This document shows positions 26,727 through 43,620 of a DNA stretch of 64,000 nucleotides, one piece after another. Numbering within the stretch: the first letter of the stretch is position 1; each line of letters starts with the position of its first letter. The notes beneath the pieces were generated by a model that searched no databases, was not told the origin of the DNA, and saw only the letters and a list, made by a program, of their open reading frames with translations. The DNA lies in the NCBI RefSeq assembly GCF_033170155.1, contig NZ_CP137079.1, positions 3,224,001 through 3,288,000 on the forward strand, read 5' to 3'. Source of the stretch: Raineyella sp. W15-4. GTDB taxonomy: Bacteria > Actinomycetota > Actinomycetes > Propionibacteriales > Propionibacteriaceae. The translations under genes were made by a program, and so were the position numbers.

Positions 26727-27932
26727 ATGAGTCAAGAAATGACGTACGGAAAGCTGGTCGAGGCCTGCTCCCCGGGGGGTGCGAGCGTACTGACCTGTGT
26801 GACAGATCTGGCGCCAGCCGCCGGCCCGCACGCCGCCGTCGCTCCTGCGCGATATGTCTCGGGAAACAATGCTTCCTACGCCTTCCAGACCCGCTTTGTC
26901 GACGGTCAGGCGATGAGCACAGCCCTTATTGACTCCAAATCCAGCCAGCTCAATCGCGTGGAGCTCGCGCTGGCGGACGCCATCCGTGACGGCGATCCTC
27001 TGCTGGGAAGGACCCCGCACCTGGTGGTTCATTACCCGGACCAGGAGGTGGCTGACTATGAACTGCCTCACCGGGTCTTCGACGGGCACGTGCGGGCAGG
27101 GTCGGTTGACGGGCGTCCGGTGACCGACCACCCCGTCTATCGAGCAGCCCGCGATGCCACGCCGGGGAATGCACGCGCATTGCTGGAGCTGAGTCCGGTG
27201 AGCCTGGTGCTGGGATCCTGGGATTCCACTCGCCGAGCCCACCAGGGGCGATATCGTTCGGCACTGGTGGGCGAGATCATCGGGGTGCTGGCCGATCAGT
27301 CCGATTCAGGCCGGGACATTCCCAGACGCGGCGGAGCGCGGCGAGATGAGGTCGCACCGAGCGTTCGGGTGAGTCCGAAGGATCTCGAGATGCTCGTAGA
27401 CGCACAGCAAGACGAGCTGAGTCCCAAGAACGTGGAGGCCTTGCGCAGGACGGCCCAGAAGGCAAAGGCCGGGACCACCGTCTCGGCGGCCGCGCTCGGT
27501 CTCGGCTCCATCCCCCCCGCTCTGGAGACGCTCGGTCTGGTCGCCTGCCGTCAGATCATCCGGTCCCACGTGTTGTCCTTCAGTTCGCTGCGGCAGCTCC
27601 GATTTGGAGGCGATCTGGACGCCGACGTGGCCTGCCGGAGTCTGCTCGCCGCGCTGGCCCTGGCTGCTCTTGTGCGGTCCAACGAGGAACTCCTCCTCAG
27701 GGCCGACTGCGATCTTGTCGAGGCGTCGGCACCGGCATTTTCCCTCGATCTCCGTAACGGTCAGGGCGAGAAGCTCGATCGCCTGGATCGTGCGGTAGCA
27801 GACGAACTCCTGGGCGCTGCGATCGAACGCGCGGAGAAGCAGGCCGGGATCCGTTGGGAGGGCCAGGTGTTCGACGTGGTGGGCAACCCGATCGTCCACG
27901 GCGGTGTGATCGAGGGAGAAGAGGAGGCCTGA
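26727..27932 (+). CDS. csb1: Csb1 (Cas7 backbone subunit of type I-G Cascade)
   Basis: A 401-residue protein of the GSU0053/Csb1 family, the Cas7-type RAMP that coats the crRNA in type I-G (former I-U) effectors. Family-like stretches are the N-terminal MTYGKLVEACSP, RVELALADAI, HRVFDGHVRAG, SPVSLVLGSWDSTR and VSPKDLEMLVDAQQDELSPKN broken over residues near 215-240. ATG 26727 is chosen because GGAGG lies 5 bp upstream; the upstream in-frame extension is not family-like. It heads a six-gene operon and is followed by csb2 one base after its stop. Confidence 0.9.
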   Translation: MSQEMTYGKLVEACSPGGASVLTCVTDLAPAAGPHAAVAPARYVSGNNASYAFQTRFVDGQAMSTALIDSKSSQLNRVELALADAIRDGDPLLGRTPHLVVHYPDQEVADYELPHRVFDGHVRAGSVDGRPVTDHPVYRAARDATPGNARALLELSPVSLVLGSWDSTRRAHQGRYRSALVGEIIGVLADQSDSGRDIPRRGGARRDEVAPSVRVSPKDLEMLVDAQQDELSPKNVEALRRTAQKAKAGTTVSAAALGLGSIPPALETLGLVACRQIIRSHVLSFSSLRQLRFGGDLDADVACRSLLAALALAALVRSNEELLLRADCDLVEASAPAFSLDLRNGQGEKLDRLDRAVADELLGAAIERAEKQAGIRWEGQVFDVVGNPIVHGGVIEGEEEA

Positions 27933-27933
27933 C

Positions 27934-29508
27934 ATGCCCACCCTCACCGTCACGGCCCGCTTCCCCCTCGGAGTCTTTGCTGGTCACGGTGCCGATGGGT
28001 CGAGCGTGGACCCGTTCCCGTCGACCAAGCGTCTCCACAGCGCCTTGATGCACGCTGCGGGCAAGGGAAGTCTTGCCATCCTGCGTAGCGGTGATCTCCG
28101 GCCGGCGGACGCATCACTCGCGGCACTGGAATGGCTGGAGACGCATATTCCTCACGCGATCCAACACCCGACTCACTGCTCGACTCGAGTTGGCACGCGC
28201 GAGCCGGCCAATGCCTATCGCGCTGAGGGAACGTTCGACAAGGCGAAGACCGGGGGCCACATCGATCGCAAGGTCCGGAAACAGGTGACCAACGCGATCG
28301 CCGTCAATGGCGCGTTCGGCTGGGAATGGTCTGGGGTCCCCGCCTCGGTCTGTCGAGTGGTGGAAGTCCTGTGCGAGGACGTGTCCTGTCTCGGGGAGGC
28401 GGACAGCCCGGTGGTCCTGTCGACGCAGATCCCACTCAGCGCGCCGATGCCTTTGGTCGAAGGAGCGGGACAGTTCACGCGGAGGGGGATGCCTGTCCAG
28501 ACGCCCTCAGCAGGGCGCACGCGCGAACTCGAAGACGCGTACGACCGCGATCACCCGTTGAAGCACCCGGATCCCAAGGCCGATCGGTTCATTGCCACGC
28601 AGGGACCGCGGCCCTCGGAGGTCACAACACAGCGAGTGCGGAACGCCTACTACGAGGCCCCTGATGCTCCGATCCCGGAGTCCCCCTGGGTTAGGACGAT
28701 GCTGTTCCCCATCGATCGTCCGATTGCCCAGAAGGATCGGGTCGGCTGGTGCGTCGCCTTTCACCGCACACTGGCGACGCGGCTCGGGGATGATGCTCCA
28801 CCGGTGATCACCGGCAGCTACGGGAAGGGCGTCCTGGCTCCGCCGAATCGCGTGGCGATCCAGATCCTGGACCAGTCCGTGCTCCATCAGACGTCCAACG
28901 CTCATCGTTACATCTCCACACCAGCAGCCTTTGCAGTACTGGTGCCGCGCGATATCGCGCCGGCGGATGAGAGGCTGCTGCTGCACGCCATCGGTAGTCG
29001 GATGAGGGTATTCCGGCGGGGTGGTGCCGTGGAGACGTCCCTTGCCGTGACCGTCCCCGCCGGCGACTTCTGGCAAGCACCCGCAGCGGGAGCCATCCGG
29101 ACCTGGGCGGCCGTTCCCGCACTGGTAGCGGAGACCAGACGACAGCGCAGCGATGAAGCAGGGCCGTGGACACTCGCCCACGCCGCACTGCTCTCCCTGG
29201 GCTTCGTCTTCCGCCCTGACTCCGAGATCAGGCACGGGGCTGATGGCTACCGCGACCTGATCCAATACGCACGAGCCCAGGGGGCCAAGGTCCTCAGTGC
29301 TCAACCGGTAGCAGACTCGCGAGTGGATCGGTACGCCCACAAGCTCCCCCAGGGGGTGGTGGCTCAGGTGTACCGGGCGCATCTCGACCTCGGACAGCTC
29401 ACCACGGACACTTCTCTGATCGTCGCAGGACAATCACGTCATATAGGCGGAGGACTTCTCGTGCCGGTCGATCTGCCGTCGGACGTCGTTGACGCGTGGT
29501 CAGCATGA
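27934..29508 (+). CDS. csb2: Csb2 (Cas5-Cas6 fusion of type I-G)
   Basis: A 524-residue GSU0054/Csb2-family protein. The N-terminal half has the Cas5-like start LTVTARFPLGVFAGHGADGS, with PSTKRLHSALMHAAG. The C-terminal half carries the Cas6-like part that cuts the repeat RNA. A conserved block is DRVGWCVAFHRTLATRLGDD, near residue 270, which also occurs in the csb2 fragment at 42577-42762. Its ATGA overlaps cas3. The expected role is to bind the 5' handle and process pre-crRNA. The catalytic residues of the Cas6 part cannot be assigned by eye. Confidence 0.9.
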   Translation: MPTLTVTARFPLGVFAGHGADGSSVDPFPSTKRLHSALMHAAGKGSLAILRSGDLRPADASLAALEWLETHIPHAIQHPTHCSTRVGTREPANAYRAEGTFDKAKTGGHIDRKVRKQVTNAIAVNGAFGWEWSGVPASVCRVVEVLCEDVSCLGEADSPVVLSTQIPLSAPMPLVEGAGQFTRRGMPVQTPSAGRTRELEDAYDRDHPLKHPDPKADRFIATQGPRPSEVTTQRVRNAYYEAPDAPIPESPWVRTMLFPIDRPIAQKDRVGWCVAFHRTLATRLGDDAPPVITGSYGKGVLAPPNRVAIQILDQSVLHQTSNAHRYISTPAAFAVLVPRDIAPADERLLLHAIGSRMRVFRRGGAVETSLAVTVPAGDFWQAPAAGAIRTWAAVPALVAETRRQRSDEAGPWTLAHAALLSLGFVFRPDSEIRHGADGYRDLIQYARAQGAKVLSAQPVADSRVDRYAHKLPQGVVAQVYRAHLDLGQLTTDTSLIVAGQSRHIGGGLLVPVDLPSDVVDAWSA

Positions 29509-32336
29509 GCCTGACGCTGTCGGATTTCGCAGACTTCTTCGGCGCAGTGAACGAAGAGCGTCGACCGAACGAACGGGACCAACCGAGCAAACGAATCGGA
29601 CCGTTCGCGTGGCAGAAGCGACTCCTTGAGCAGGTCGCGATGACCGGACGATGGCCCGATGTCATCAGCGCCCCCACGGGCTCGGGCAAGTCGGCGGTGG
29701 TCGAGGTGCACGTATTCGCCAATGCGCTCGCTGCCGCAGGGGCGGCGAAGCGAGTGCCCCGCCGGCTTGCGATGGTGGTGGACCGTCGAGCGCTTGTCGA
29801 TAGCCACGTGGTGCGGGCGGAGCGGATTCGTGACGCTCTCAGGGCCGGTACTGACCCGGTCCTGCAGGAAGTGAAGCGCTGTCTCTCCCTCCTCACATCG
29901 GCCACCGACGCAACCGACCCGGATGGCTCACCCTTGGTTGTCGCAGAGCTCCGGGGAGGAATGTCCCCGGATTCGGGATGGATCGACGATCCTTCGGCTT
30001 GTACCGTGATCGGCGCCACCCCAGACATGTGGGGCAGCCGCCTACTGTTGCGAGGCTACGGCGCCAGACCTCAGGCCCGCCCGCGAGAGGCCGGCCTGCT
30101 CGCGTATGACGCGGCGATGGTCCTGGATGAGAGCCATCTGAACCGACAGCTGCTGCGTACGGCACAAAGGGTCGCCGAGCTCACGGAACGATTCGAGCAG
30201 GATCTGGGCGTCCCCACCTTGCAGGTCGTTCAGACGACCGCAACACCCGCTGCCGATGACGTTAGCCATCCGCAGAGCGTCATCGGAGTGGAACAGGCAG
30301 ACCTCGACGGCGTCGACCACGACGAGCTGGCTCGTCGGCTCACACGCCCGAAGCCGGTGACGTTCGTCGAGTCGCCGTCGTGGCCGTCACGTATACCAGC
30401 CCCCCAGAGCCACATTGACACGCTGGTGCAACAGGTACTGGAGCTGTGCAGACCTGGTGGAAGTAGTACCCAACAGACCGGCCCCCTCGGCTGCATGGTC
30501 AACCATGTCGACACCGCCGTACGTGTGGCGCGACAACTCAAGGAGCGGGGCCTGGAGGTGGGCTGTTGGGTCGGCCGCAAGCGCCCGATGGACATCGACA
30601 AACTTCTGAAGGACCATTCCGAACTGTTCGATTCCGGCAAATCCAACGCGACCGACGTCAAGAAGCCTGGTGAGTTGTTCGATCCCAGCACGACCGACGA
30701 TTCGGTACCCGACACCCCAGCACCTCCCTTGGATGTCCTCGTCGCGACCCAGACCGTTGAAGTAGGCGTAGACCTTGATCTGCGCGGGCTGGTGACCGAG
30801 CTCGCGAGCGCTTCCGCCCTGGCCCAGCGGTGCGGGCGGGTGAATCGCCGCGGACGGTTGGACGAAGCTCCGGTCGTCGTGGTGGGGCCCCAAGCGTCAA
30901 AGCCGATCCGTGATCTTCCGCCCTACAGTGCGGCTGATCTCGAAGAGGGCCGTGCCTGGCTGGCCCGCCTGGAGCCCGCTCAGGGGCTGAGTCCGTGGGC
31001 AGTGCGGTCGATGCCGCCACCGCCGGCGGCGAAGCGACGCCTGTATTTCATGCGACCGGAACTATCGGACGCCTGGCGGCTTGCCGCAACCTCCGATCAG
31101 GAGTTCGAGGACGAGAGTCTCGGGCTCTGGCTTCGCGACGATTTGGAGGATGACGCTCTGACGGCGGGGCTGGTGCTTCGAGGGCCACTGCCCCTCGATG
31201 ACTCCGAGTCCATGGAGCTCTTACTCGCCACTCCCCCACATCCTGACGAGACCTATCCGGTGAAGCTCGGAGACCTCCGTATTGTGGCCGATCGCGTCTT
31301 GGCGGGGGATTCGACCGACCGGGCACGAGCATTTCTGTATCGGCAGCAATCTCGTGAAGAGACATTCACCTTCCTACGCAGTTCCTCCGACATTCGACCG
31401 GGCGATGTGGTGGTCATCGACAAGGGACATGCGGTCACCGAGCACGGGGTTGTGGTCACCGAGCTCCCCTCACGCCGCGAAACGGTGCAGACCGTCTGGG
31501 GCCCTGATCGCGTCTGGGTGGCCGTGCGTGATCATCCAGCGCCGGACGGACTTGCCTTCTGGTCTGACATACTCCGAGATCTGGCCGAGGTGGGAGCGGA
31601 GTCCGCCCAAGCAGAGTTCGATCTACAAACCGTGGGGACGACGGTGCAAGGAAAAATCACGGTACCTCGAAGCGAGGAAGACCCGACTGAGTTTTCGTGG
31701 CTGGTCGTCACCGGGGACGAAGTCAACAATGCAGACGAGAGCGTCCGACAGGAATGGACCACCAGCGGGGATAGCGTGCCGCTCGACAAGCACAGCGAGG
31801 CCGTCCGAGACAGGGCGGAGCTGATGACTGTGCGGATCGGTCTATCACCGGAATGGCGCCAAGTCACGATCGATGCGGCAGCCTGTCATGATCTGGGCAA
31901 GGACCATCCCGGCTTCCAGCGGGCACTCGGCCAGGCTCCGGCGGGTCCGCTGCTGGCCAAGTCGGCGACTCGTACGCCGCAACAACTCCGTGCTGACAAG
32001 CGGGCTGCGGGCCTGCCACGCGGCTGGCGCCACGAACACCGGTCAGTTCTCCATGCGCTCGGTCAGTTGGAGGGACGGCCGCATCTGAATCTGACACTGC
32101 GCCTCATCGGCACGAGCCATGGCTACGGCCGCGCCCTCACGCCCCAGCGGGGCAAGGAGCTCTGCGCGCCGGGTGACCCGGCCGAGTGGCAGTCACGAGC
32201 CGACGAACTGTACGACTTCGGTGAGTGGGCCTCCATCGTGGGAGAGACGGACCGCACCATCGGGGTCTGGGCCTGCGCCTATCTGGAGGCGGTCGTCCGA
32301 GCGGCGGACTGCCAGGTGTCTCGGGAGGGATCGTGA
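29505..32336 (+). CDS. cas3: Cas3 helicase-nuclease, HD domain at C-terminus
   Basis: A 943-residue Cas3. The helicase comes first: Walker A APTGSGKS near residue 57, DExH-like MVLDESHLNR near 207, TTATPAAD (motif III), and a C-terminal helicase lobe VATQTVEVGVDLDLRG with QRCGRVNRRG near 415-445. The HD nuclease is at the C-terminus, with DAAACHDLGKDHPGF near residue 790 and further His residues in HEHRSVLHAL and GTSHGYGRAL. This order (helicase then HD) is that described for type I-G and the reverse of most type I systems. It overlaps csb2 and csb3 by ATGA and GTGA. Confidence 0.94.
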   Translation: MSLTLSDFADFFGAVNEERRPNERDQPSKRIGPFAWQKRLLEQVAMTGRWPDVISAPTGSGKSAVVEVHVFANALAAAGAAKRVPRRLAMVVDRRALVDSHVVRAERIRDALRAGTDPVLQEVKRCLSLLTSATDATDPDGSPLVVAELRGGMSPDSGWIDDPSACTVIGATPDMWGSRLLLRGYGARPQARPREAGLLAYDAAMVLDESHLNRQLLRTAQRVAELTERFEQDLGVPTLQVVQTTATPAADDVSHPQSVIGVEQADLDGVDHDELARRLTRPKPVTFVESPSWPSRIPAPQSHIDTLVQQVLELCRPGGSSTQQTGPLGCMVNHVDTAVRVARQLKERGLEVGCWVGRKRPMDIDKLLKDHSELFDSGKSNATDVKKPGELFDPSTTDDSVPDTPAPPLDVLVATQTVEVGVDLDLRGLVTELASASALAQRCGRVNRRGRLDEAPVVVVGPQASKPIRDLPPYSAADLEEGRAWLARLEPAQGLSPWAVRSMPPPPAAKRRLYFMRPELSDAWRLAATSDQEFEDESLGLWLRDDLEDDALTAGLVLRGPLPLDDSESMELLLATPPHPDETYPVKLGDLRIVADRVLAGDSTDRARAFLYRQQSREETFTFLRSSSDIRPGDVVVIDKGHAVTEHGVVVTELPSRRETVQTVWGPDRVWVAVRDHPAPDGLAFWSDILRDLAEVGAESAQAEFDLQTVGTTVQGKITVPRSEEDPTEFSWLVVTGDEVNNADESVRQEWTTSGDSVPLDKHSEAVRDRAELMTVRIGLSPEWRQVTIDAAACHDLGKDHPGFQRALGQAPAGPLLAKSATRTPQQLRADKRAAGLPRGWRHEHRSVLHALGQLEGRPHLNLTLRLIGTSHGYGRALTPQRGKELCAPGDPAEWQSRADELYDFGEWASIVGETDRTIGVWACAYLEAVVRAADCQVSREGS

Positions 32337-33382
32337 ACATCGAGATCAGCGGCTCGGTCGAGGTCGCCCTCACCCACTTCGCCATGTACGGTCTCGGCCT
32401 TATTCTGAGTGACTCGGGGGCACGGCGCGTCCGCGTGTGGTGGGCCGACGGACCTGAGGCCCGCGCGACCGTGGCGTGGGAGGGAGATTCATCGGCCGCC
32501 GAGGTGCTCCAGCGCCATGCTGCGAAACACCATGAGGATGACTCCTGGGTCCAAGCCACCTTCAAGCACAAGTTCGAGCAGAAGGGGGCGATCAAGGACA
32601 CAATCATCGGATTATTCAGTCCCCGAATCCCTCAGGCGGTGTCCGCCGACGCGTGGCAAGCCCTGGAGAAGTGTCGCGAGAAATACCTGGATGACCCCTC
32701 TTTGACGAAACTCGATCGGCTCATGATCGGCGCCCTCGGGGAACCTGCCCACTGGTTGTGCGGTGGGAAGGACAATCAACCGGACCTCGGCGCCACCCGG
32801 TGGGAGATGAAGACACGCAACCGCGGCGAGGAGTTCGTACAGCACCGTCTCGCTCCTTTGGCACATATTGTGGCGGGGCGCAGTCTCCAACAGATCGACG
32901 ATGGTCTCACCGGGACGGCGATCCTCGATGAGCTGGGAAAGAACTCGCCGGGTTCCCGGACCGGGACCGGATTCTCGAGCCCAGGACCGGTCGACAGCGC
33001 GCTGGCATGGTGCGCACTGTGGGGTATCAGCCTGATACCGCTGGTGCCGCAGGTCGGGCGCATGTCTCAGACGGCCGGGACCTCGCCGCGCCGACGGGTT
33101 CACCCGGACCACGTAGCGTTGCCGGTCTTCACCCGCCCCACCTCACTCGACCTGTGGCGGGCGATCCTGGCGTCGGCAATTTTCGATCGCGCGGCCTTCG
33201 GCCAGAGTCAGACCGGTTCCGATGTCGCAGATCCTCGCGCGGCAGACGTCGCGAGTGCCCGCGCCACGTTGCGAGAGCGGGGGGTCGCGGGACTTGTGCG
33301 CTTTCCCGTACGCGTCGACAACCCCAACGCCCCCGAACGCAGCATCCTCTGGGGTGTGGTCGATCCGCTGGCGGATTCATGA
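32333..33382 (+). CDS. csb3: Csb3 (small Cas8-type subunit, Balac_1303 family)
   Basis: A 349-residue protein in the position of the large subunit. Its length and start (EISGSVEVALTHFAMYGLGL) fit the Csb3 (Balac_1303) family, which replaces Csx17 in type I-G loci of Bifidobacterium and other Actinobacteria. RWEMKTRNRGEEFV and SALAWCALWGISLIPLV are recognisable stretches. By analogy with Cas8 it would recognise the PAM and recruit Cas3; this is inference. GTG 32333 overlaps the cas3 stop with GGGAGG upstream. The stop overlaps cas4-cas1. Confidence 0.85.
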   Translation: MNIEISGSVEVALTHFAMYGLGLILSDSGARRVRVWWADGPEARATVAWEGDSSAAEVLQRHAAKHHEDDSWVQATFKHKFEQKGAIKDTIIGLFSPRIPQAVSADAWQALEKCREKYLDDPSLTKLDRLMIGALGEPAHWLCGGKDNQPDLGATRWEMKTRNRGEEFVQHRLAPLAHIVAGRSLQQIDDGLTGTAILDELGKNSPGSRTGTGFSSPGPVDSALAWCALWGISLIPLVPQVGRMSQTAGTSPRRRVHPDHVALPVFTRPTSLDLWRAILASAIFDRAAFGQSQTGSDVADPRAADVASARATLRERGVAGLVRFPVRVDNPNAPERSILWGVVDPLADS

Positions 33383-34995
33383 GCCTTCTCGGCGCTGATG
33401 CCAGCGAGCCACTTCCCATCAGCCTCGTGGGCCATACCGTCTTCTGTCCGCGGCGAGCGTGGCTGGAGGCAGCGGGTGAAAGGGTCGACAGCTACCAGAT
33501 GGAGGTGGGATCGTCAGCCCACCGACGCGTCGACGATCCCACCAGCAGCAGACCAACGGCCCAGCGATCGGTCGATGCGCATCATGCCGAGCTGGGAATC
33601 GTGGGCAAGTGCGACATCGTCGAAGGCGACCCGGCGCAGGGCGTGCAAGTGATCGAGTACAAGGCCTCGCCTGTGCGTCGACAGCCCACTGTCACGGATC
33701 CGCATCGGATCCAGCTGACCCTGCAGCGGATGTGTCTGGAGTCCATGGGCCTGCGGGTGGCGAGTATGGGGGTCTACTTCACCAATCATCAGAGCCTGGT
33801 CACTGTCGAGCCGAGCACCGAACTGGACACTCGAGCCATCGATTACGTGTCGCAGACACGGGCCATTGTGGAAGGTAAGTCGGCCCCACCCCCATTGGAT
33901 GCGGACGAGAAATGCCGGTTCTGCTCACATGCCTCGGTGTGCCTGCCCGACGAGATCACCGCGGCCAAGCCGGCCCGGTCAATCAGCGTCACGGATCCCA
34001 ACACAGACATCCTGCATCTACTGACGTACGGCAGCCGGGCTCAGCTGCGTCAAGGGCGAATACAGGTCGTCAAGGGGGACGAAGAACTCGCGTCGGTACC
34101 GTTGGAGAGGGCCGCGGGCCTCGTCATCTACGGCAATATTGATGTCTCCGGCGCTCTGGTCCGAGAACTGCTGTGGCGTGGTGCCACGATCGTCTGGTGC
34201 TCCGGAACCGGCCGGGTCATCGGCTGGAGTCGGTCCGCCAAGGCGCCGCACGGCCACGAACGAGTGGCGCAGTACCTACGTTCGGAGCAAGGAGATCTGG
34301 GCATGGCCCGAGAATTCGTGGCCTGCAAGATCGGAAATCAAGCCACCCTGCTGAGGCGCAACGGTACGGCAACAGCCACCGCCGTCGCCGACATCCGGAA
34401 AGTCAAACGACGCGCCGGGCAAGTCCGATCACTGCCTGACCTGTTCGCAGTGGAGGGCGAAGCGGCGGCTCTCTACTTCGCAGGATTTCCAGGCATGTTC
34501 AAAGAACGGGCCGATCAGTCGCTGGTCGGAGAGTGGGACGGTCGTGCCGGGCGCCACGCATCCGACCCGCTGAACGCCGCGCTCAACTTCGTGTACGGCA
34601 TGCTGCTGTCCGACACGATCCGCGCGATCGTTGCGTGCGGGCTGGATCCGTCGGCTGGCTTCCTACATTCGAGTGCACGGAACAAGCCGGCACTGGCGCT
34701 GGACCTGATGGAGGAGTTCAGGGCCCCGATCGCCGACTCCGCGATAATCGGGGCCGTCAACAACGGATCCTTCGACGCCACCATGGTGACGAGATCACTA
34801 GGAGACTGCAGGCTGACGGAACGAGGCCGCAAAGTGGTGACCTCCGCTTACGAACGGCGGGCACAGACCGTCATCACTCACCCGGAATTCGGATACCGCG
34901 TGACCTGGCGGAGGGCGATTGAGATCCAGGCCCGCATGGTCCTCGCCGTGCTGGACGGAACCCGGCAGGACTATCGAGGGGTGCAAACGCGGTGA
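33379..34995 (+). CDS. cas4-cas1: Cas4-Cas1 fusion (adaptation nuclease/integrase)
   Basis: A 538-residue fusion, a hallmark of type I-G. The Cas4 part (1-195) has the first iron-sulfur Cys in FCPRRAW (about residue 23), RecB-type nuclease residues in GKCDIVEG and VIEYKAS, and the last three Cys in CRFCSHASVC near 178-187. Cas1 (about 205-538) starts DILHLLTYGSRAQLRQG and has the metal ligands Glu in FAVEGEAAALYF (near 358), His in GFLHSS (near 428) and the acidic ALDLMEEF (near 442). It integrates PAM-selected spacers with Cas2. All key residues look intact, so adaptation should work. Confidence 0.95.
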   Translation: MSLLGADASEPLPISLVGHTVFCPRRAWLEAAGERVDSYQMEVGSSAHRRVDDPTSSRPTAQRSVDAHHAELGIVGKCDIVEGDPAQGVQVIEYKASPVRRQPTVTDPHRIQLTLQRMCLESMGLRVASMGVYFTNHQSLVTVEPSTELDTRAIDYVSQTRAIVEGKSAPPPLDADEKCRFCSHASVCLPDEITAAKPARSISVTDPNTDILHLLTYGSRAQLRQGRIQVVKGDEELASVPLERAAGLVIYGNIDVSGALVRELLWRGATIVWCSGTGRVIGWSRSAKAPHGHERVAQYLRSEQGDLGMAREFVACKIGNQATLLRRNGTATATAVADIRKVKRRAGQVRSLPDLFAVEGEAAALYFAGFPGMFKERADQSLVGEWDGRAGRHASDPLNAALNFVYGMLLSDTIRAIVACGLDPSAGFLHSSARNKPALALDLMEEFRAPIADSAIIGAVNNGSFDATMVTRSLGDCRLTERGRKVVTSAYERRAQTVITHPEFGYRVTWRRAIEIQARMVLAVLDGTRQDYRGVQTR

Positions 34996-35294
34996 CCAGA
35001 CAGGACGCACATCGCTACGTCATCGCTTATGACATCACGGATGACAGGCGACGATCCGCGCTGGCCACGCTGCTGCAGGGATACGGCGATCGTGTCCAGT
35101 TCAGTGTCTTCGTGATCGACTCGCCGGCCGCGGGAATGGTGAGACTCAGCGATGCCATCCGGCAAGTCATTGACGGGGTCCAAGACTCTGTCCTCATCTG
35201 CGACCTCGGCCCATTGCGCTCGCTCGGGCCCAAGACCTTCGGGGTGATCGGTCGGCAGCGGCCGATCACCACGGGGGCGTCGTTCGTCATCTAG
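34992..35294 (+). CDS. cas2: Cas2
   Basis: A 100-residue Cas2 with the ferredoxin-like start HRYVIAYDITDDRRRSAL, whose Asp is the typical beta-strand-1 acidic residue, and GYGDRVQFSVFVID (the RVQ.SVF motif). It bridges Cas1 dimers in the integration complex. The GTG start overlaps the cas4-cas1 stop. It is the last gene of the operon; the array starts 201 bp later in the same direction. Confidence 0.95.
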   Translation: MTRQDAHRYVIAYDITDDRRRSALATLLQGYGDRVQFSVFVIDSPAAGMVRLSDAIRQVIDGVQDSVLICDLGPLRSLGPKTFGVIGRQRPITTGASFVI

Positions 35295-35495: not shown

Positions 35496-38400
35496 GACTC
35501 CCGGGCTTCGGCCCGGGACCTTCGTTGAGGCGTTCCACCGAAGCAGCAGAGACAGCCAGCCAAGAAGACTCCCGGGCTTCGGCCCGGGACCTTCGTTGAG
35601 GCTGGACGTGGACTGCTGACCCTGGTCAACAGCTGTCGACTCCCGGGCTTCGGCCCGGGACCTTCGTTGAGGCGACAGTGACACGGGGACCGCCCGGTGC
35701 GTCATCATGCAAGACTCCCGGGCTTCGGCCCGGGACCTTCGTTGAGGCGGGACTAGGGATACAGGCGGGAAAGCATACTTCCGGACTCCCGGGCTTCGGC
35801 CCGGGACCCTCGTTGAGGCGGCTATCTGGACATCGTTACGGGCGCGGCTCCGGACGACTCCCGGGCTTCGGCCCGGGACCTTCGTTGAGGCGGCACCGAG
35901 CTCACCCCGAAGGCGTTCGCGTTCGAGACTCCCGGGCTTCGGCCCGGGACCTTCGTTGAGGCGGCATGTGATGTGTCGATAACTCCCCATCGCATAGGAC
36001 TCCCGGGCTTCGGCCCGGGACCTTCGTTGAGGCGCCGCCCTGAGTGACGAGGGCGGCGTCCAGGTCTTCGAGACTCCCGGGCTTCGGCCCGGGACCTTCG
36101 TTGAGGCACGTCGATCCCGTGGATGGCGAAACGAGTAAAGGTAGACTCCCGGGCTTCGGCCCGGGACCTTCGTTGAGGCGGGCCAGCAGGCGGGCGCGGC
36201 GCAGCCGGGCCGAGACTCCCGGGCTTCGGCCCGGGACCTTCGTTGAGGCCCACCCACCGCGATCACCATCGAGAGCGCGGTCGAGCAGGACTCCCGGGCT
36301 TCGGCCCGGGACCTTCGTTGAGGCGAGTCCCTGTGCCGCGGCTTCGACACGGAAGTCTGGACTCCCGGGCTTCGGCCCGGGACCTTCGTTGAGGCCTCAC
36401 ATTCTAGCTCGAATGCACTACGCGAGAGCGACTCCCGGGCTTCGGCCCGGGACCTTCGTTGAGGCTCGACCAGCGCCTGGCCATCGGCGTACGACGGGGA
36501 GGACTCCCGGGCTTCGGCCCGGGACCTTCGTTGAGGCACCCCGCCGAGCGCTGCAGCGACCTCTGCCGCCTCGACTCCCGGGCTTCGGCCCGGGACCTTC
36601 GTTGAGGCTGGTGGGGGTACTGGGGCTGCGACCAGATCAAGCGGACTCCCGGGCTTCGGCCCGGGACCTTCGTTGAGGCGCAGGGTGGGGCCGCGGCTTC
36701 GGCCTGGCCGTCTTGACTCCCGGGCTTCGGCCCGGGACCTTCGTTGAGGCCCGACCAGCTGGATCATCGCCCAGCAGGCCGAGCAGACTCCCGGGCTTCG
36801 GCCCGGGACCTTCGTTGAGGCCGGTACCAGATTCGGACGCCTGTACGACGGCATCGAGGACTCCCGGGCTTCGGCCCGGGACCTTCGTTGAGGCGACAAG
36901 CTCCGCCTCCAATCCCAGCGACGCGCCCAAGGACTCCCGGGCTTCGGCCCGGGACCTTCGTTGAGGCGACGTGTGGGGCAGCAGCGGCCTGATGGGCGAC
37001 CCGCGACTCCCGGGCTTCGGCCCGGGACCTTCGTTGAGGCGACGTGTGGGGCAGCAGCGGCCTGATGGGCGACCCGCGACTCCCGGGCTTCGGCCCGGGA
37101 CCTTCGTTGAGGCTCATGAGGCGGCGGACATGTCGGGCCACGCGTCCTCGACTCCCGGGCTTCGGCCCGGGACCTTCGTTGAGGCGCAACAGTTGCCGAT
37201 TTGACGATGGGGAGCCAGTCGAGGACTCCCGGGCTTCGGCCCGGGACCTTCGTTGAGGCGGCTGAACGCCGGTCTGGAGCAGGCGCCCCAGGTGACTCCC
37301 GGGCTTCGGCCCGGGACCTTCGTTGAGGCTGATCGACCAGTTTCCACTGGATTCACACTCAGCCGGACTCCCGGGCTTCGGCCCGGGACCTTCGTTGAGG
37401 CCTGGACATGTGCACCCGAGCCGTCAAGGGGTGCCGAGGACTCCCGGGCTTCGGCCCGGGACCTTCGTTGAGGCGACGTGGACGATCTGATCGTGCGGGC
37501 CAACCGCTCGGGACTCCCGGGCTTCGGCCCGGGACCTTCGTTGAGGCGCCAAGTAGTCCTTAGCGGTGCCGACAGCGTTTGCCTTGACTCCCGGGCTTCG
37601 GCCCGGGACCTTCGTTGAGGCTCGGTCCCGTCCGGGCGGGTGCGGCGGATCTGGTCGACTCCCGGGCTTCGGCCCGGGACCTTCGTTGAGGCAGTCCCCA
37701 CCTGCCCTCGTAGAGCCCTTCCTGGGGCCCGACTCCCGGGCTTCGGCCCGGGACCTTCGTTGAGGCTGCAGAGCAGATAGATGCCGCAGAAGCCAAGACA
37801 GTGACTCCCGGGCTTCGGCCCGGGACCTTCGTTGAGGCTTGTAGTACAAACTAGGACAGGAAGGTCGACGTATGGACTCCCGGGCTTCGGCCCGGGACCT
37901 TCGTTGAGGCCTTGAGTGAGTAGCTTGCACCGTGAAGCCAACCGGGACTCCCGGGCTTCGGCCCGGGACCTTCGTTGAGGCGATCTGCGTGGGGCACATC
38001 ACACTCCCACCCCTTGGACTCCCGGGCTTCGGCCCGGGACCTTCGTTGAGGCGGCGGCACCGGTTCATGGGGCGCGCTATTCGCGTCGGAAGACTCCCGG
38101 GCTTCGGCCCGGGACCTTCGTTGAGGCAGAGACTGACTGGGGGATCGGCGGGGGTCGCCCACAGGGACTCCCGGGCTTCGGCCCGGGACCTTCGTTGAGG
38201 CCCGCAGTTATGGTCGTCGACCCATTGGTCTGGGGTGACTCCCGGGCTTCGGCCCGGGACCTTCGTTGAGGCTCGACCCGTAATGCCCGTCGACATCGGC
38301 CTGGCGAAGACTCCCGGGCTTCGGCCCGGGACCTTCGTTGAGGCGAGATTGCGGTGGCAACGTGGGGTGCCGCGACGACGGACTCCCGGGCTTCGGCCCG

Positions 38401-38743
38401 GGACCTTCGTTGAGGCTCTGGAGAAGCCAGTCACCCAAAGGACGGAGTCCGGGACTCCCGGGCTTCGGCCCGGGACCTTCGTTGAGGCGCGGTGGCTGAG
38501 TGGGCAGCGGCTCACGGTGAGACGGACTCCCGGGCTTCGGCCCGGGACCTTCGTTGAGGCCTGACCCGGCCCGGGGTACTGGCCTACGTGTTGAGCCTCG
38601 ACTCCCGGGCTTCGGCCCGGGACCTTCGTTGAGGCCTGACCCGGCCCGGGGTACTGGCCTACGTGTTGAGCCTCGACTCCCGGGCTTCGGCCCGGGACCT
38701 TCGTTGAGGCCTGACCCGGCCCGGGGTACTGGCCTACGTGTTG
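35496..38743 (+). CRISPR. Type I-G CRISPR array, leader-proximal part (45 repeats)
   Basis: Forty-five 36-nt repeats, from 35496 to 38675, each starting GACTCCCGGG and ending CTTCGTTGAGGC; spacers are 34-39 nt (period 70-75). Inside the repeat TCCCGGGC-TTCG-GCCCGGGA forms a perfect 8-bp stem with a TTCG loop. Repeat 5 (35784) has one change (CCCTCG for CCTTCG); the others look identical. Spacers 36968-37004 and 37041-37077 are identical, as are 38561-38599 and 38636-38674. The array is in the same direction as the cas genes. The last spacer here is cut by an IS at 38744. Confidence 0.98.
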
Positions 38744-38811
38744 GGGACTGCTGCAGGTTTGGTTGACTCCTGAAATGAGCCGGTGGGAGCTGGCTCTGGA
38801 AGGATCACCCC

Positions 38812-39264
38812 ATGCCGAGGAAGTACCCCGACGAGTTCCGTCGTGACGTCGTCCGTGCCGCGCGGGCCTCTGATGCCCCAGTCGAGGAGATCGCCCGCGA
38901 TTTCGGTGTCTCGAAGTCCGCGTTACAGCGCTGGCTGGCCCAGGCCGACATCGACGACGGCCACCGCGAAGGCGTGACCTCCAGCCAGGACGCGGAGCTG
39001 AAGGCGCTACGCAGAAGGACCCGGGAGTTGGAGCAGGAGAACGAGGTCCTGCGCCGCGCCGCGGCCTACTTCGCCAAGGAGCTGCCCCCAAAAGATCCAC
39101 CCGCTGATCGGCGACCTGGCAGCCGACGAGATCCCCGTCACCGTGTCCTGCCGGGTCCTGGGGTTCTCCAAGCAGGCGTACTACGCCTGGCGGGCGAACC
39201 CTGTCAGTCAGCGGGAATGGGACGAGGCGCACCTGATCAACGCCGCCCTCAAGGTCCACCATGA
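38812..39264 (+). CDS. IS3 OrfA (HTH protein), reading through past its usual end
   Basis: Residues 1-93 are a normal IS3 OrfA: MPRKYPDEFRRDVVRAA, helix-turn-helix VEEIARDFGVSKSALQRWL, and a leucine-zipper-like LKALRRRTRELEQENEVLRR, then AAYFAKELPPK. OrfA of this group usually stops about here. In this copy the frame stays open to 39264 with a tail that is not family-like. The likely cause is one missing base near 39094, at the CCCCCAAAAGA tract where frameshifting to orfB would take place. Confidence 0.85.
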   Translation: MPRKYPDEFRRDVVRAARASDAPVEEIARDFGVSKSALQRWLAQADIDDGHREGVTSSQDAELKALRRRTRELEQENEVLRRAAAYFAKELPPKDPPADRRPGSRRDPRHRVLPGPGVLQAGVLRLAGEPCQSAGMGRGAPDQRRPQGPP

Positions 39265-39968
39265 CGATCCGGAGTTCGGCTACCGGCTGATCACCGACCA
39301 ACTCACCGAGAAGGGCCTGACGGCCTCGGAGCGGCCGGGTGTGGCGGTTGTGCTCGAGTCAGCGGATCTGGTCGGTGTTCGGCAAGGCCCCCTACCGGGG
39401 ACGCCGTCCCGGTCCGCCGGCGCACGACGACCTCGTGCAGCGACAGTTCAGCGCCGAGCAGGCGAACCGGTTGTGGCTGGTCGACATCACCGAACACCAC
39501 ACGAATGAGGGCAAGCTCTACCTGTGCGCCGTCAAGGACGTCTGGTCCAACCGGATCGTCGGCTACTCCATCGACTCACGCATGAAGGCATCACTCGCCG
39601 TCACTGCGCTGCGCAACGCCGTCCAGCGCCGCCGCCCGCCGGCCGGCTGCGTCGTCCACAGCGACAGGGGCAGCCCGTTCGGTTCCAAGGCCTACCGCCG
39701 CGAACTGGAGCTCTTCGGGCTGGCCGGCTCGATGGGCCAGGTCGGCTCGAGTGCCGACAATGCCGCGATGGAATCCTTCTTCGCGCTGCTCCAGCGCAAC
39801 GTGTTGGACCGACGACGCTGGGCCACCCGCGACCAGCTCCGCCTGGCGATCGTGACCTGGATCGAACGCACCTATCACCGCCGCCGCAGGCAACGCCGCC
39901 TCGGACGCCTGACCCCCATCGAGTACGAGACCCTCAACACCAACCCTCAGATCGCACTCGCGGCCTGA
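39083..39968 (+). pseudogene. IS3 OrfB transposase (DDE), split by frameshifts
   Basis: The transposase is read in two frames. Bases 39083-39334 give KIHPLIGDLAADEIPVTVSC and AYYAWRANPVSQREWDEAHL, ending GLTASER. From 39336 the next frame gives RVWRLCSSQRIWSVFGKAPY and the integrase core with VDITEHHT, HSDRGSPF and DNAAMESFF, so D, D and E are intact. One extra C at 39335-39336 separates the parts. Together with the missing base near 39094, the two indels cancel out for the catalytic half. The element is probably not autonomous, unless these are sequencing errors. Confidence 0.8.
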
Positions 39969-40006
39969 GACCCACAACACGAGTCAACCAAAATGTGAGC
40001 AGTCCC

Positions 40007-42577
40007 TTGAGCCTCGACTCCCGGGCTTCGGCCCGGGACCTTCGTTGAGGCCTGACCCGGCCCGGGGTACTGGCCTACGTGTTGAGCCTCGACTCCCGGG
40101 CTTCGGCCCGGGACCTTCGTTGAGGCGCGCAGACGGCACGGCCTGCATCGGCTGCAGCTGGCAGACTCCCGGGCTTCGGCCCGGGACCTTCGTTGAGGCC
40201 TGTGGACGTTTCGCGGAACTGTCGGCGGAGAACCAGCACGACTCCCGGGCTTCGGCCCGGGACCTTCGTTGAGGCGCGGCGCCCGCGCAGCCTGACGAAC
40301 AAGCCACCGACGACTCCCGGGCTTCGGCCCGGGACCTTCGTTGAGGCACGAGGCCCGGTCATCCGCGCCCCAAGGCGGGGACGGACTCCCGGGCTTCGGC
40401 CCGGGACCTTCGTTGAGGCAACGCATGATTGCTCAGGGTTATGAGGTGCTCCAATCGACTCCCGGGCTTCGGCCCGGGACCTTCGTTGAGGCCATGTGAG
40501 GACCGGAGTCCCCGGGGGGCATTAGCGGGACTCCCGGGCTTCGGCCCGGGACCTTCGTTGAGGCGGATACCTAGGGATGGTATCGGGTGCTGCCCCCGAT
40601 GACTCCCGGGCTTCGGCCCGGGACCTTCGTTGAGGCCCAGATCATGCCGGGATCACCACGCCCACCCCTCGCGACTCCCGGGCTTCGGCCCGGGACCTTC
40701 GTTGAGGCCGAGCACCTTCTCGCCGCTCTCCGGGTGGTAGTGCGACTCCCGGGCTTCGGCCCGGGACCTTCGTTGAGGCTGGAGAGGATTACCTCAGTAA
40801 ATTCACACGTCCGGAAGACTCCCGGGCTTCGGCCCGGGACCTTCGTTGAGGCGTCGCCGTCGCCGCCGGTGCCCATGCCGGCCCAGGCGGACTCCCGGGC
40901 TTCGGCCCGGGACCTTCGTTGAGGCTCGATGTACAGCCTTGGCTCCGAAGATCCACCGGCAGACTCCCGGGCTTCGGCCCGGGACCTTCGTTGAGGCCCC
41001 TCACCGGGGGTATCGACAGGTCCGCGGCGGCCTAGGACTCCCGGGCTTCGGCCCGGGACCTTCGTTGAGGCGGGCTGTCGTTGGGGGAATAGCGGCCGCC
41101 GGACTGGACTCCCGGGCTTCGGCCCGGGACCTTCGTTGAGGCTAGGGGCCGGCGGCCGGCCACCGTAGCTCCGTCAGGCAGACTCCCGGGCTTCGGCCCG
41201 GGACCTTCGTTGAGGCGCCACCGCCGCGGTCGGTGCGGGCGAGACGGCGGTGACTCCCGGGCTTCGGCCCGGGACCTTCGTTGAGGCTCCGGGTCGTGTC
41301 CGACGAGCTTCCACGCGACTACAGACTCCCGGGCTTCGGCCCGGGACCTTCGTTGAGGCTCCATCGTCCTCAAGGGCGCGGTCGACGCGACATCGACTCC
41401 CGGGCTTCGGCCCGGGACCTTCGTTGAGGCCGGTACCGGATCAAGGCACAGAACAGCTCCGGACGACTCCCGGGCTTCGGCCCGGGACCTTCGTTGAGGC
41501 CGGTACCGGATCAAGGCACAGAACAGCTCCGGACGACTCCCGGGCTTCGGCCCGGGACCTTCGTTGAGGCCCGCCGGGGAGATGGCGGCCGTACGCCGGC
41601 GCGCTGGACTCCCGGGCTTCGGCCCGGGACCTTCGTTGAGGCACGTCCACCTACGCGGCACGGGTGCCGTACCTCACCCGACTCCCGGGCTTCGGCCCGG
41701 GACCTTCGTTGAGGCTTGCCCCGCCCCACCATTCAGCGGCCAGCCGGACGTGGACTCCCGGGCTTCGGCCCGGGACCTTCGTTGAGGCCGTGACCTGCTG
41801 GCCAGGCTCCGGGGCGACGACCGAGACTCCCGGGCTTCGGCCCGGGACCTTCGTTGAGGCACGGATGGGCGGGTGGCCACCGAGGTGGTGGCGGACGACT
41901 CCCGGGCTTCGGCCCGGGACCTTCGTTGAGGCCACGAGCCTGGTGTGGTGTGTTGGTATGAGTGGAGACTCCCGGGCTTCGGCCCGGGACCTTCGTTGAG
42001 GCGAGCCGGCGATGATCCGCAGCTCGGGGTTGCGGGTGGACTCCCGGGCTTCGGCCCGGGACCTTCGTTGAGGCCAGACCCGTCCCTGGGACGAGGCACG
42101 GTCCGGCTCGACTCCCGGGCTTCGGCCCGGGACCTTCGTTGAGGCCCTTCACCAGGCCGGGTGGCCGCCACCGACCTGCTGGACTCCCGGGCTTCGGCCC
42201 GGGACCTTCGTTGAGGCGACATGGCCCGCACCGAGTACGAGGATCAGGTCCGCGGACTCCCGGGCTTCGGCCCGGGACCTTCGTTGAGGCGACTACGCGG
42301 TGCCGAACGGCACGGCGGTGATGGCGGACTCCCGGGCTTCGGCCCGGGACCTTCGTTGAGGCGACTACGCGGTGCCGAACGGCACGGCGGTGATGGCGGA
42401 CTCCCGGGCTTCGGCCCGGGACCTTTGTTGAGGCTACAACGAGGCGATCCTCGTCTCCCCGATCGGGAAGGACTCCCGGGCTTCGGCCCGGGACCTTCGT
42501 TGAGGCTGCAACGTGATCCTCGGCGACGAAGGGACGACCGGGGGCCTCCCGGGTCGGCCCGGGATCTTCGTTGAGGG
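40007..42577 (+). CRISPR. Type I-G CRISPR array, leader-distal part (36 repeats)
   Basis: Thirty-six repeats from 40016 to 42544, same 36-nt unit. The part begins with the end of the interrupted spacer (TTG, then AGCCTC). Spacer 40052-40090 is a further copy of that spacer, so it occurs four times in a row. Other tandem duplicates are 41431-41464 with 41501-41534, and 42291-42326 with 42363-42398. Near the end repeats decay: 42399 has CTTTGTTG, and the last (42544-42577) is 34 nt with several changes. This is the oldest end of the array. Any transcript from the leader must pass through the IS. Confidence 0.97.
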
Positions 42578-42762
42578 GCCGCAAACGGCGAGGGCAAGCT
42601 CGAGCGGGTCGCAGGCCCGGGGAGGTAGTGCCCCATGAGCAGGAAAGGCGCTTCGTCGCGCAGTCCCCAAAACAGGGCCCGATGGAAGGCGACACACCAC
42701 GAAACGCGTTCCTCAGGCCGAAGCTGGCCGTCACGGATGGAGAAGGCGAGCACTCGCCACCG
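42577..42762 (-). pseudogene. Fragment of a second csb2 gene, inverted, at the end of the array
   Basis: Read on the minus strand, this gives WRVLAFSIRDGQLRPEERVS followed at once by WCVAFHRALFWGLRDEAP. It lines up with the intact Csb2 of this locus (DRVGWCVAFHRTLATRLGDDAP), with about 15 of 21 residues the same in the core. The match is lost exactly where the last degenerate repeat begins and about 62 codons upstream. Neither a start nor the rest of the gene is present. It is a remnant of a different type I-G locus in opposite orientation. Confidence 0.8.
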
Positions 42763-42773
42763 GATGTGACCTT

Positions 42774-43046
42774 TCACACACTCGACTGGATGGTTCGAAC
42801 GCGGTCCGGGCCCTTGCTGATACGCCGGACCGAGAGACTGACCCGGGATACCTGGCGACTTACGCTCTGCTCCACGACCGCCTGGACAGAAATTGACGTC
42901 GAATCCAGGCGACCCGGCCCACCAACTGCGCGACGGGGTATCGCAGCAGGGTCGCCAGATGACCATAGACGTTTCGTCGCCTCGGTCACGACGTCAACGA
43001 GAACCCCGAGGTCATCGACGTCGTCGGGTGTCAGTTCCTGAGCCAT
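42774..43046 (-). CDS. Hypothetical 90-aa ORF, doubtful
   Basis: It starts MAQELTPDDVDDLGVLVDVV and ends RTIQSSV, with AGAGAGGGG before the ATG. The first 40 residues look helical and acidic, the rest is low in structure. It lies in the decayed stretch after the array and abuts the csb2 fragment. No family was recognised; it could be the 5' part of a broken gene. Confidence 0.35.
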   Translation of the reverse strand: MAQELTPDDVDDLGVLVDVVTEATKRLWSSGDPAAIPRRAVGGPGRLDSTSISVQAVVEQSVSRQVSRVSLSVRRISKGPDRVRTIQSSV

Positions 43047-43541
43047 GGCAGCCCCTCTCTACTAGCCGGGAAAGTGGCGTTCTGCCGTCCGACCGCTTCC
43101 GTGCTGTGGAATCGACACTAGGGGAAGGGAGACGCTCAGTAGGTGGACTTGGGGAGAATGTGACACATCTTATCGCCCTTCCTTGAACCTACCCAATAGA
43201 ACTACCCAGTAGGAAGAAGGGGTGGTCGGATGCCGACGCACCCGACCACCAACACGTGAACGGATCGCAACCGGCCCGAGAGATCCACCCAACCTCAACG
43301 AAGGCGGCACCGTCCAACTGAGCGGGCTGACCACGGTGCACCGCACGTACTGAGCCTACGCTGACGAGCGCCCGTCTCGCCGACCTCTCGACACTTCTCC
43401 CAGGCCAAGCTGGCGATCAGGCCAAGCTGGCGATCCGCAAGATCGTCCAGTCCCTCCAGCCGCCCAAGTCCGCCACCATCCATGGGGATCCCGAGGGATG
43501 GCGCCAAGTAGAAGGCCCTCGGCCCGCCAGCGCGAACACAC
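43047..43541. other. Decayed intergenic region
   Basis: About 500 bp with no intact gene. Two plus-strand stretches read like protein ends: NLNEGGTVQLSGLTTVHRTY then stop (about 43293-43354), and a stretch around 43385-43560 with KLAIRKIVQSLQPPKSATIH. CCAAGCTGGCGATC is repeated. These may be gene scraps left by recombination next to the CRISPR array. The families were not recognised. Confidence 0.4.
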
Positions 43542-43607
43542 CTGCCAAAACAGCATCAGAGTACCTGCTAAATTGACATTAGAAGATCTGCCAAAACGAC
43601 ATCAGGG
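43542..43607 (+). repeat. Three iterons with exact 23-bp period before the DUF4143 gene
   Basis: CTGCCAAAACAGCATCAG (43542), CTGCTAAATTGACATTAG (43565) and CTGCCAAAACGACATCAG (43588) are spaced exactly 23 bp apart, about two helical turns. The last ends next to the ribosome-binding site. They look like cooperative binding sites controlling the ATPase gene. Confidence 0.75.
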
Positions 43608-43620
43608 AGCGGAGGTGCTC

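What the first reader, a model, noticed from the sequence alone, without database searches (positions are those of the whole stretch)
42544..42762. Inverted csb2 fragment fused to the decayed end of the array
Seen: a minus-strand stretch matches Csb2 in a WCVAFHR block and stops exactly at the degenerate last repeat. It is clearly diverged from the csb2 of this locus. Inference: an older or foreign type I-G locus lay here in the opposite direction, and recombination joined it to the array end; or two arrays were joined.
Basis: partly seen in the sequence, partly recalled or inferred. Interest (0 to 1): 0.7.

Follow-up and report, generated by a model that had tools for sequence, protein, structure and literature searches.

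The report
Inverted CRISPR operon remnant with self-guide
Beyond the old end of this CRISPR array lies the reversed, mostly deleted start of a second, different CRISPR operon, which still carries a mini-CRISPR whose guide matches a site in the neighbouring promoter region, a form of RNA self-regulation that the searches made here did not find described for this CRISPR subtype.

Summary
A 56-codon minus-strand block (42592-42759) matches the middle of Csb2 (PADLOC Cas56g E=1.2e-9; TIGR02165 E=2.4e-5) and ends 13-16 nt from the degenerate last repeat. It is 45% identical to the local Csb2 (21/47), so it is not a copy of it. Upstream on the same strand I found what looks like the front of the lost operon: a solitary type I-G repeat (its 12-nt core occurs once outside the array in 3.96 Mb), a guide, a second hairpin, and a TAC-flanked site matching the guide (13/15; none of 17,487 random guides reached that). 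Guide-target pairs of this kind lie within 650 nt upstream of csb1 in 16 of 64 named I-G loci, all after TAN; in 6 of them the layout is as in the window. This is the CreR design (RNA-guided cas autorepression), which a review passage gives for I-B, I-E and V-A. Here no csb1 is detectable and csb2 is a stump, but the regulatory element looks intact. None was found upstream of the live operon. Whether the orphan element works is untested.

The parts
35496..42506 (+). live type I-G CRISPR array (80 matched repeats), interrupted at 38711-40015 by a transposase-bearing insert
42542..42578 (+). degenerate terminal repeat of the live array
42592..42759 (-). csb2 stump (middle of Csb2, about residues 250-306)
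42760..42849 (-). possible weak extension of the csb2 stump in the same frame
   Evidence: tblastn alignments to the Csb2 of L019/L050
42774..43046 (-). orphan ORF (90 aa) with an RBS-like stretch, starting about where csb1 starts in several intact loci; no csb1 match
43167..43172 (-). -10-like TAAGAT
   Evidence: the consensus scan reports no promoter
43191..43196 (-). weak -35-like TTGGGT, 18 nt before the -10-like box, overlapping the guide target
   Evidence: not reported by the scan
43192..43208 (-). guide target, 13/17 matches (13/15 without positions 6 and 12)
43209..43211 (-). TAC in PAM position of that target
43212..43250 (-). putative second degenerate repeat (psiR2): 13-bp hairpin 43250-43221 followed by CCTTCTTCC; also reads as terminator-like
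43251..43291 (-). guide (its first 17 nt, 43291-43275, match the target)
43292..43340 (-). first degenerate repeat (psiR1): possible hairpin plus CCTTCGTTGAGG handle (43304-43293)
26727..27932 (+). csb1 of the live operon; no CreR-like candidate found in the 650 nt upstream
27934..29508 (+). csb2 of the live operon
29496..32336 (+). cas3g of the live operon
32225..33382 (+). ORF holding cas8g of the live operon
33007..34995 (+). ORF holding the cas4/cas1 fusion
34992..35294 (+). cas2

Best explanation
The minus strand from about 43340 down to 42592 is the 5' end of a second type I-G cas operon of another lineage, lying tail-on against the live array. In its intact form a mini-CRISPR (psiR1-guide-psiR2) upstream of the first cas gene would be processed like ordinary crRNA and loaded into the I-G complex, which would then bind, with only partial pairing, a TAC-flanked site in the cas promoter and repress it (CreR-type autorepression). 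Later csb1 and most of csb2 were lost and the stump came to abut the last repeat of the live array, leaving the regulatory element. Shown by sequence: stump homology; repeat, guide, target and PAM; guides fitting their own upstream region across loci. Inferred: transcription, processing, repression, and how the junction formed.
For: Csb2 profile and BLAST matches. The 12-mer CCTCAACGAAGG occurs 79 times in the genome: 78 on one strand in the array and once inverted at 43293-43304. With no PAM imposed, the best target of a solitary repeat's guide was preceded by TAC in 15 of 34 candidates, against 10 of 1400 random positions. In 66 csb1-upstream regions (64 named loci, own, ghost) TAC targets of at least 13/15 occur in 14; null mean 0.08, maximum 1 in 40 replicates. 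With no PAM imposed, the 17 matches of at least 13/15 (one per region: 16 named loci and the ghost) all have TAN: 14 TAC, 2 TAT, 1 TAA. Own pairs: 17 of 17 at 13 or more; cross pairs: 1 of 270 at 12 or more. Guide position 6 matches in 1 of 17 and position 12 in 7 of 17, both left out of the score; other positions 13-17; mismatch tolerance at every sixth base of type I guides is recalled. Ghost alone: none of 17,487 random guides reach 13. In 6 named loci guide and target both run in the csb1 direction with the target between guide and csb1, as in the ghost. Published I-G PAMs include TAC (Rothia) and TAN (Propionibacterium) (PMC8482600, passages).
Against: No csb1 remnant is detectable, so the operon reading rests on the csb2 stump plus the regulatory element. 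Of the 16 named loci, 10 differ in layout: in 5 (L072, L089, L091, L095, L115) the guide points away from csb1, and in 5 others (L079, L084, L103, L107, L113) the target lies beyond the guide, 392-619 nt from csb1, so it need not be the csb1 promoter. 48 of 64 named loci and the live operon show no pair at this threshold, and 19 of 34 candidates had no TAC target, among them exact repeat ends such as L085 and L105. PMC8482600 lists AAN for Acidipropionibacterium, whereas L051 (A. thoenii) shows TAC here, and TTN or TTC in other genera. The scan found no sigma-70 promoter. The psiR1 stretch folds no better than shuffles (z 0.17). The ORF at 43046 might be another gene.
Confidence: 0.8

Rival explanations
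1. The element is not a remnant but a live addiction or regulatory module (CreTA/CrePA-like): the live I-G complex uses the solitary guide to repress the promoter of the small orphan ORF at 43046, and the csb2 stump is a bystander left from the module's origin.
For: Guide and target match as well (13/15) as in L055, L063, L072 and L074, while csb1 is undetectable. The ORF start sits near the csb1 start position and is not csb1. The repeat core is identical to that of the live array. CreTA and CrePA are published designs (PMC12737573, passages).
Against: Besides itself the ORF matches 49 of 197 genomes of the family search at E<=0.1, best 3.1e-4 over 75 residues at 32% with a stop inside, which I take as noise; none in plasmids or PHROGs. 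The coding signal seems to change frame within it (my reading, not scored). No expression data.
Confidence: 0.2
2. The stump is a rearranged piece of the live operon's own csb2 (duplication or inversion).
For: Same gene family, adjacent locus.
Against: Only 21/47 identical to the local Csb2, less than to the Actinomyces oris protein (31/62); local csb2 matches its model end to end; no solitary repeat or guide found upstream of the live csb1.
Confidence: 0.02
3. The stump was split from the second csb2 of this genome (2.826 Mb) by a chromosomal inversion.
For: A second csb1-csb2 pair exists at 2826026 and its csb2 matches TIGR02165 only over positions 2-179.
Against: That csb2 is one 447-aa ORF followed by a long unidentified ORF, with 28-nt repeats of another kind.
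Confidence: 0.01
4. A phage- or plasmid-borne cas fragment (anti-CRISPR type) inserted at the array end.
For: Phages carry cas fragments (recalled).
Against: No match of the stump in 72,556 plasmid records; in 50,697 phage records two weak matches (E=0.05) to capsid genes; the adjacent guide element fits a cas operon front.
Confidence: 0.03

Closest known systems
CreR (cas-regulating RNA, mini-CRISPR autorepression of cas genes)
   Same: Solitary degenerate repeats near a cas operon front; guide with partial complementarity to a PAM-flanked site upstream of the cas genes
   Different: Given for I-B, I-E and V-A in PMC13131331 (passage), and more loosely for 'Type I and Type V-A' in PMC12737573 (passage); here type I-G with TAN; layout varies; in this window no csb1 is left; no expression or repression shown
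CreTA / CrePA (CRISPR-repressed toxin-antitoxin)
   Same: Ectopic degenerate repeat pair, guide matching a neighbouring promoter region
   Different: No recognisable toxin; the ORF at 43046 is an orphan of uncertain coding value
Type I-G Csb2 (TIGR02165, Cas56g)
   Same: The stump aligns to its middle block
   Different: 56 codons instead of about 500; some residues invariant in eight intact Csb2 are changed in the stump

Membership tests
Csb2 / Cas56g | significant match to the family profile | tested here: met
   PDLC01776 1.2e-9, TIGR02165 2.4e-5 for the 70-aa piece
Csb2 / Cas56g | full-length gene above the curated cut-off | tested here: not met
   23.7 bits against a cut-off of 45; 56 codons
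CreR | degenerate solitary repeat(s) outside the array, upstream of a cas operon | tested here: met
   16 of 64 named I-G loci plus the window element, repeat ends with 0-2 mismatches; in the window the operon behind it is only a csb2 stump
CreR | guide partly complementary to a PAM-flanked site in the cas promoter | tested here: inconclusive
   pairing and TAN flank met in 17 of 17, 1 of 270 cross pairs; that the site is the csb1 promoter is likely where it lies within about 180 nt of csb1 (9 of 16 named loci), less clear in the other 7; no transcription start is known
CreR | guide RNA is made and loaded into the effector | not testable with these tools
   no expression data
CreR | represses the cas promoter | not testable with these tools
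   no expression data
CreTA / CrePA | guide-repressed gene encodes a toxic RNA or protein | tested here: inconclusive
   orphan ORF at 43046 without convincing homologue
second CRISPR array joined tail to tail | several regularly spaced inverted repeats | tested here: not met
   a single inverted copy of the 12-nt repeat core

The most novel reading that the evidence does not exclude
The regulatory element of the lost operon is still at work: the live type I-G complex, upstream of whose own operon no such element was found, loads the orphan guide and represses the orphan promoter, so that a self-regulator has outlived its operon and become, or is becoming, an addiction or regulatory module. 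More widely, type I-G systems of Actinobacteria repress their own cas genes, or neighbouring genes, with a guide encoded in front of the operon.
Probability: 0.2. Interest if true: 0.8.

Novelty: new variant of a known kind. Interest (0 to 1): 0.62.

Why it matters
It gives a sequence-level case that type I-G CRISPR-Cas carries RNA-guided regulation in front of its cas operon, with guide, PAM and target readable in 16 named loci and therefore directly testable. It also shows one such element apparently outliving its operon, the kind of intermediate that a path from self-regulator to addiction module would need. The flank recovered without imposing any PAM (TAN) is one of the published type I-G PAMs, an internal check.

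Tried and rejected
Inversion between the two csb2 loci of the genome: rejected, the other csb2 is one ORF. More csb1 or csb2 remnants in 42579-43620: profiles of csb1 and csb2 found none beyond the stump. Homologues of the flank: a DNA search of 57 genomes, own included, gave three other matches of about 30-43 nt; plasmids none. Homologues of the 43046 ORF: weak matches only (50 of 197 genomes at E<=0.1, itself included, best other 3.1e-4; 8 of 391 at E<=0.05 for a further piece, itself included, best other 0.013). The same arrangement at array ends of relatives: stretches were fetched for seven; five (L041, L043, L045-L047) contain an array of any length and show no further csb2 piece, two (L042, L044) end before one. 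Protospacers of the live array, to read its PAM: in phages only the insert matched; plasmids, second half of the array only, gave one weak hit; so the PAM of the live system is not known from its own spacers. A HicA-like reading of the small ORF upstream of csb1 in L051: no Pfam support. Rfam: one match far below the gathering score. No chain in the PDB set matched the local Csb2 by sequence. An array spacer or other repeat-like site of the window acting on the live csb1 upstream region: best 10/15. The first genome-contig scan found nothing. Structure prediction was not tried.

The random control had 17,487 guides, not 20,000. Confidence was lowered from 0.82 to 0.80 for the first reason. In one search three of the 70 regions (L048, L066, L109) were cut wrongly by my script, too near a contig end; none of them gave a candidate, but they contributed 60 of the 1400 control positions.

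Full report
Setting. The window is 3224001-3288000 of a 3.96 Mb single-contig genome. It carries a type I-G locus on the plus strand: csb1, csb2, cas3g, cas8g, cas4/1, cas2 and an array with 80 matched repeats, interrupted at 38711-40015 by an insert with transposase domains. The three congeners held show no match to the Csb2 profile. Their homology to the right flank starts at about 44880, and nothing matching 42.5-44.8 kb lies in the stretches fetched next to it. So the block appears to be a variable island.

The observation. The minus strand of 42592-42759 encodes 56 residues that match the middle of Csb2 (PADLOC Cas56g 1.2e-9; TIGR02165 2.4e-5; a profile of eight Csb2 proteins, 3e-10 over six frames). 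Against 76 Csb2 sequences (72 distinct) the best is Actinomyces oris, 31 of 62 identical; the local Csb2 gives 21 of 47. The match runs to PATRSSL, aligned with PANRVAI, 13-16 nt from the end of the degenerate last repeat. In the genome, TIGR02165 matches three places: the local csb2, a second csb2 at 2826026, and this piece. The second is a 447-aa ORF in another setting.

What lies upstream of the stump. The 12-mer CCTCAACGAAGG occurs 79 times in the genome: 78 are array repeats on the minus strand and one is inverted, at 43293-43304. Scanning 68 named type I-G loci fetched with a Csb2 alignment for exact repeat 3' ends showed single copies about 1.3-1.8 kb upstream of csb2, hence just upstream of csb1, in five loci (L051, L052, L063, L069, L081), and reversed ones in L072 and L085. 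In L051 and L052 the 16 nt after the solitary repeat recur about 70 nt further on, with one or two mismatches, after GTAC. The same search on the reversed window stretch gave, as its best site in 1560 nt, TGGGTAGTTCTATTGGG after CTAC for the guide TGGGTGGATCTCTCGGG.

Controls. (a) No PAM imposed: the best target was preceded by TAC in 15 of 34 solitary-repeat candidates (31 of 70 regions had one), against 10 of 1400 random positions; the other 19 candidates had no TAC target (three of the 70 regions were wrongly cut, without effect on the 34). (b) TAC imposed, 66 csb1-upstream regions (64 named, own, ghost; 48 had a repeat candidate within two mismatches): at least 13/15 in 14 regions, null mean 0.08, maximum 1 over 40 replicates. 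(c) No PAM imposed in the same regions: 17 matches of at least 13/15, one per region, all after TAN (14 TAC, 2 TAT, 1 TAA); 16 are named loci, one is the window element. (d) Guides against own and foreign upstream regions, TAN required: 17 of 17 own pairs at 13 or more, 1 of 270 cross pairs at 12 or more. (e) Position 6 matches in 1 of 17, position 12 in 7 of 17, the others in 13 to 17; positions 6 and 12 had been left out of the score. That type I guides tolerate mismatch at every sixth base is recalled. (f) Window element alone: of 17,487 random window 17-mers, 5 reach 12 and none 13.

Layout across the 16 named loci. In six (L051, L052, L055, L063, L069, L074) guide and target both run in the csb1 direction with the target between guide and csb1, as in the window. 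In four (L089, L091, L095, L115) the guide runs the other way but the target lies 66-182 nt before csb1 on its strand; in L072 both are on the opposite strand with the target 27 nt before csb1. In five (L079, L084, L103, L107, L113) the target lies beyond the guide, 392-619 nt from csb1, so another promoter may be meant. The loci come from Acidipropionibacterium, Propionibacterium, Actinomyces, Nesterenkonia, Gordonia, Phytohabitans, Corynebacterium, Prauserella, Flaviflexus, Haematomicrobium and Bifidobacterium. L051/L052 and L079/L084 are from related organisms and not independent.

Anatomy in the window (minus strand): psiR1 hairpin and handle 43340-43292; guide from 43291; putative psiR2, a 13-bp hairpin at 43250-43221 followed by CCTTCTTCC, which also reads as terminator-like; TAC 43211-43209; target 43208-43192; TTGGGT 43196-43191 and TAAGAT 43172-43167, 18 nt apart. 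The consensus scan reports no promoter, so these boxes are only suggestive, and the psiR1 stretch folds no better than shuffles. An RBS-like stretch and ATG lie at 43046, 258 nt after the start of the repeat handle. In the ten loci printed that distance to csb1 ranges from 92 to 594 nt; in the six with the same layout it is 216, 259, 262, 289, 594 and 594. The ORF there is not recognisable as csb1 and has only weak matches elsewhere.

Reading. Stump and mini-CRISPR lie on one strand in the order of an intact type I-G operon front (solitary repeat, target, csb1 position, csb2), so one inverted, truncated operon explains both. Its csb2 differs from the live one as much as from those of other genera, which points to another lineage. 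No such element was found in 650 nt upstream of the live csb1, and the ghost guide does not fit that region (5/15). With a pattern made from the positions shared by guide and target, the ghost target is the only place in the genome with fewer than two mismatches (its own perfect match is by construction).

Comparison with the literature. CreR is described as a crRNA-like RNA 'in Type I and Type V-A' systems that guides Cascade or Cas12a to the cas promoter (PMC12737573, passages), with autorepression in I-B, I-E and V-A (PMC13131331, passage; also mentioned in PMC12948488, passage). Degenerate psiR1/psiR2 pairs are known from CreTA (PMC9458426, passages). Type I-G PAMs: TAC in Rothia, TAN in Propionibacterium, AAN in Acidipropionibacterium, TTN and TTC elsewhere (PMC8482600, passages). 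The AAN entry disagrees with the TAC seen here in A. thoenii. Further: TAC in Bifidobacterium moukalabense and TAT in B. longum (PMC7284854, passages); TAT in B. lactis (PMC12915315, passages). No held paper has both 'CreR' and 'type I-G'. The listings, which are capped, showed no paper on such an element in type I-G by title or abstract; two papers there hold both CreTA and I-G, PMC9458426 (I-G in a reference only) and PMC12162490 (I-G in a table, unrelated). The primary CreR paper is not held and was not read, so a type I-G case in its survey cannot be excluded.

Verdict. The finding is real and is the visible tip of a reversed, decayed second operon. Its most interesting part lies outside the given coordinates: a CreR-type element, apparently intact, which led to guide-target pairs in 16 named type I-G loci. 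Function, and whether the orphan copy is alive, is inference.

Noticed in passing
genome 2818000-2837000 (L137): Second csb1-csb2 pair, followed by a long unidentified ORF (1380 codons stop to stop) and 86 copies of a 28-nt repeat spaced 61 nt (one gap of 84): type I-G-like genes next to repeats of another kind.
   Followed up: partly
window 38711-40015: Insert with transposase domains (HTH_Tnp_1, rve; IS3-like by recall) inside the array; 67-70% identical DNA in three human faecal phage records. In relatives L041 and L043 successive exact repeat matches are once 1508 and 2681 nt apart; content not examined.
   Followed up: partly
L051 8374-8628; L052 around 973-1149: Small ORF between the guide target and csb1 in Acidipropionibacterium thoenii and a related MAG; no Pfam family above cut-off. 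Possibly the gene that the guide regulates first.
   Followed up: partly
window 43498-44871 (start uncertain): AAA_14/DUF4143 ATPase ORF between the remnant and the conserved flank; nothing matching it in the stretches fetched from three congeners.
   Followed up: partly
window 36932-37077 and 42291-42398: Neighbouring identical spacers within the array.
   Followed up: no
L079, L084, L103, L107, L113 upstream of csb1: Guide-target pairs whose target lies beyond the guide, away from csb1, three of them in Bifidobacterium: the guide may regulate another gene.
   Followed up: no
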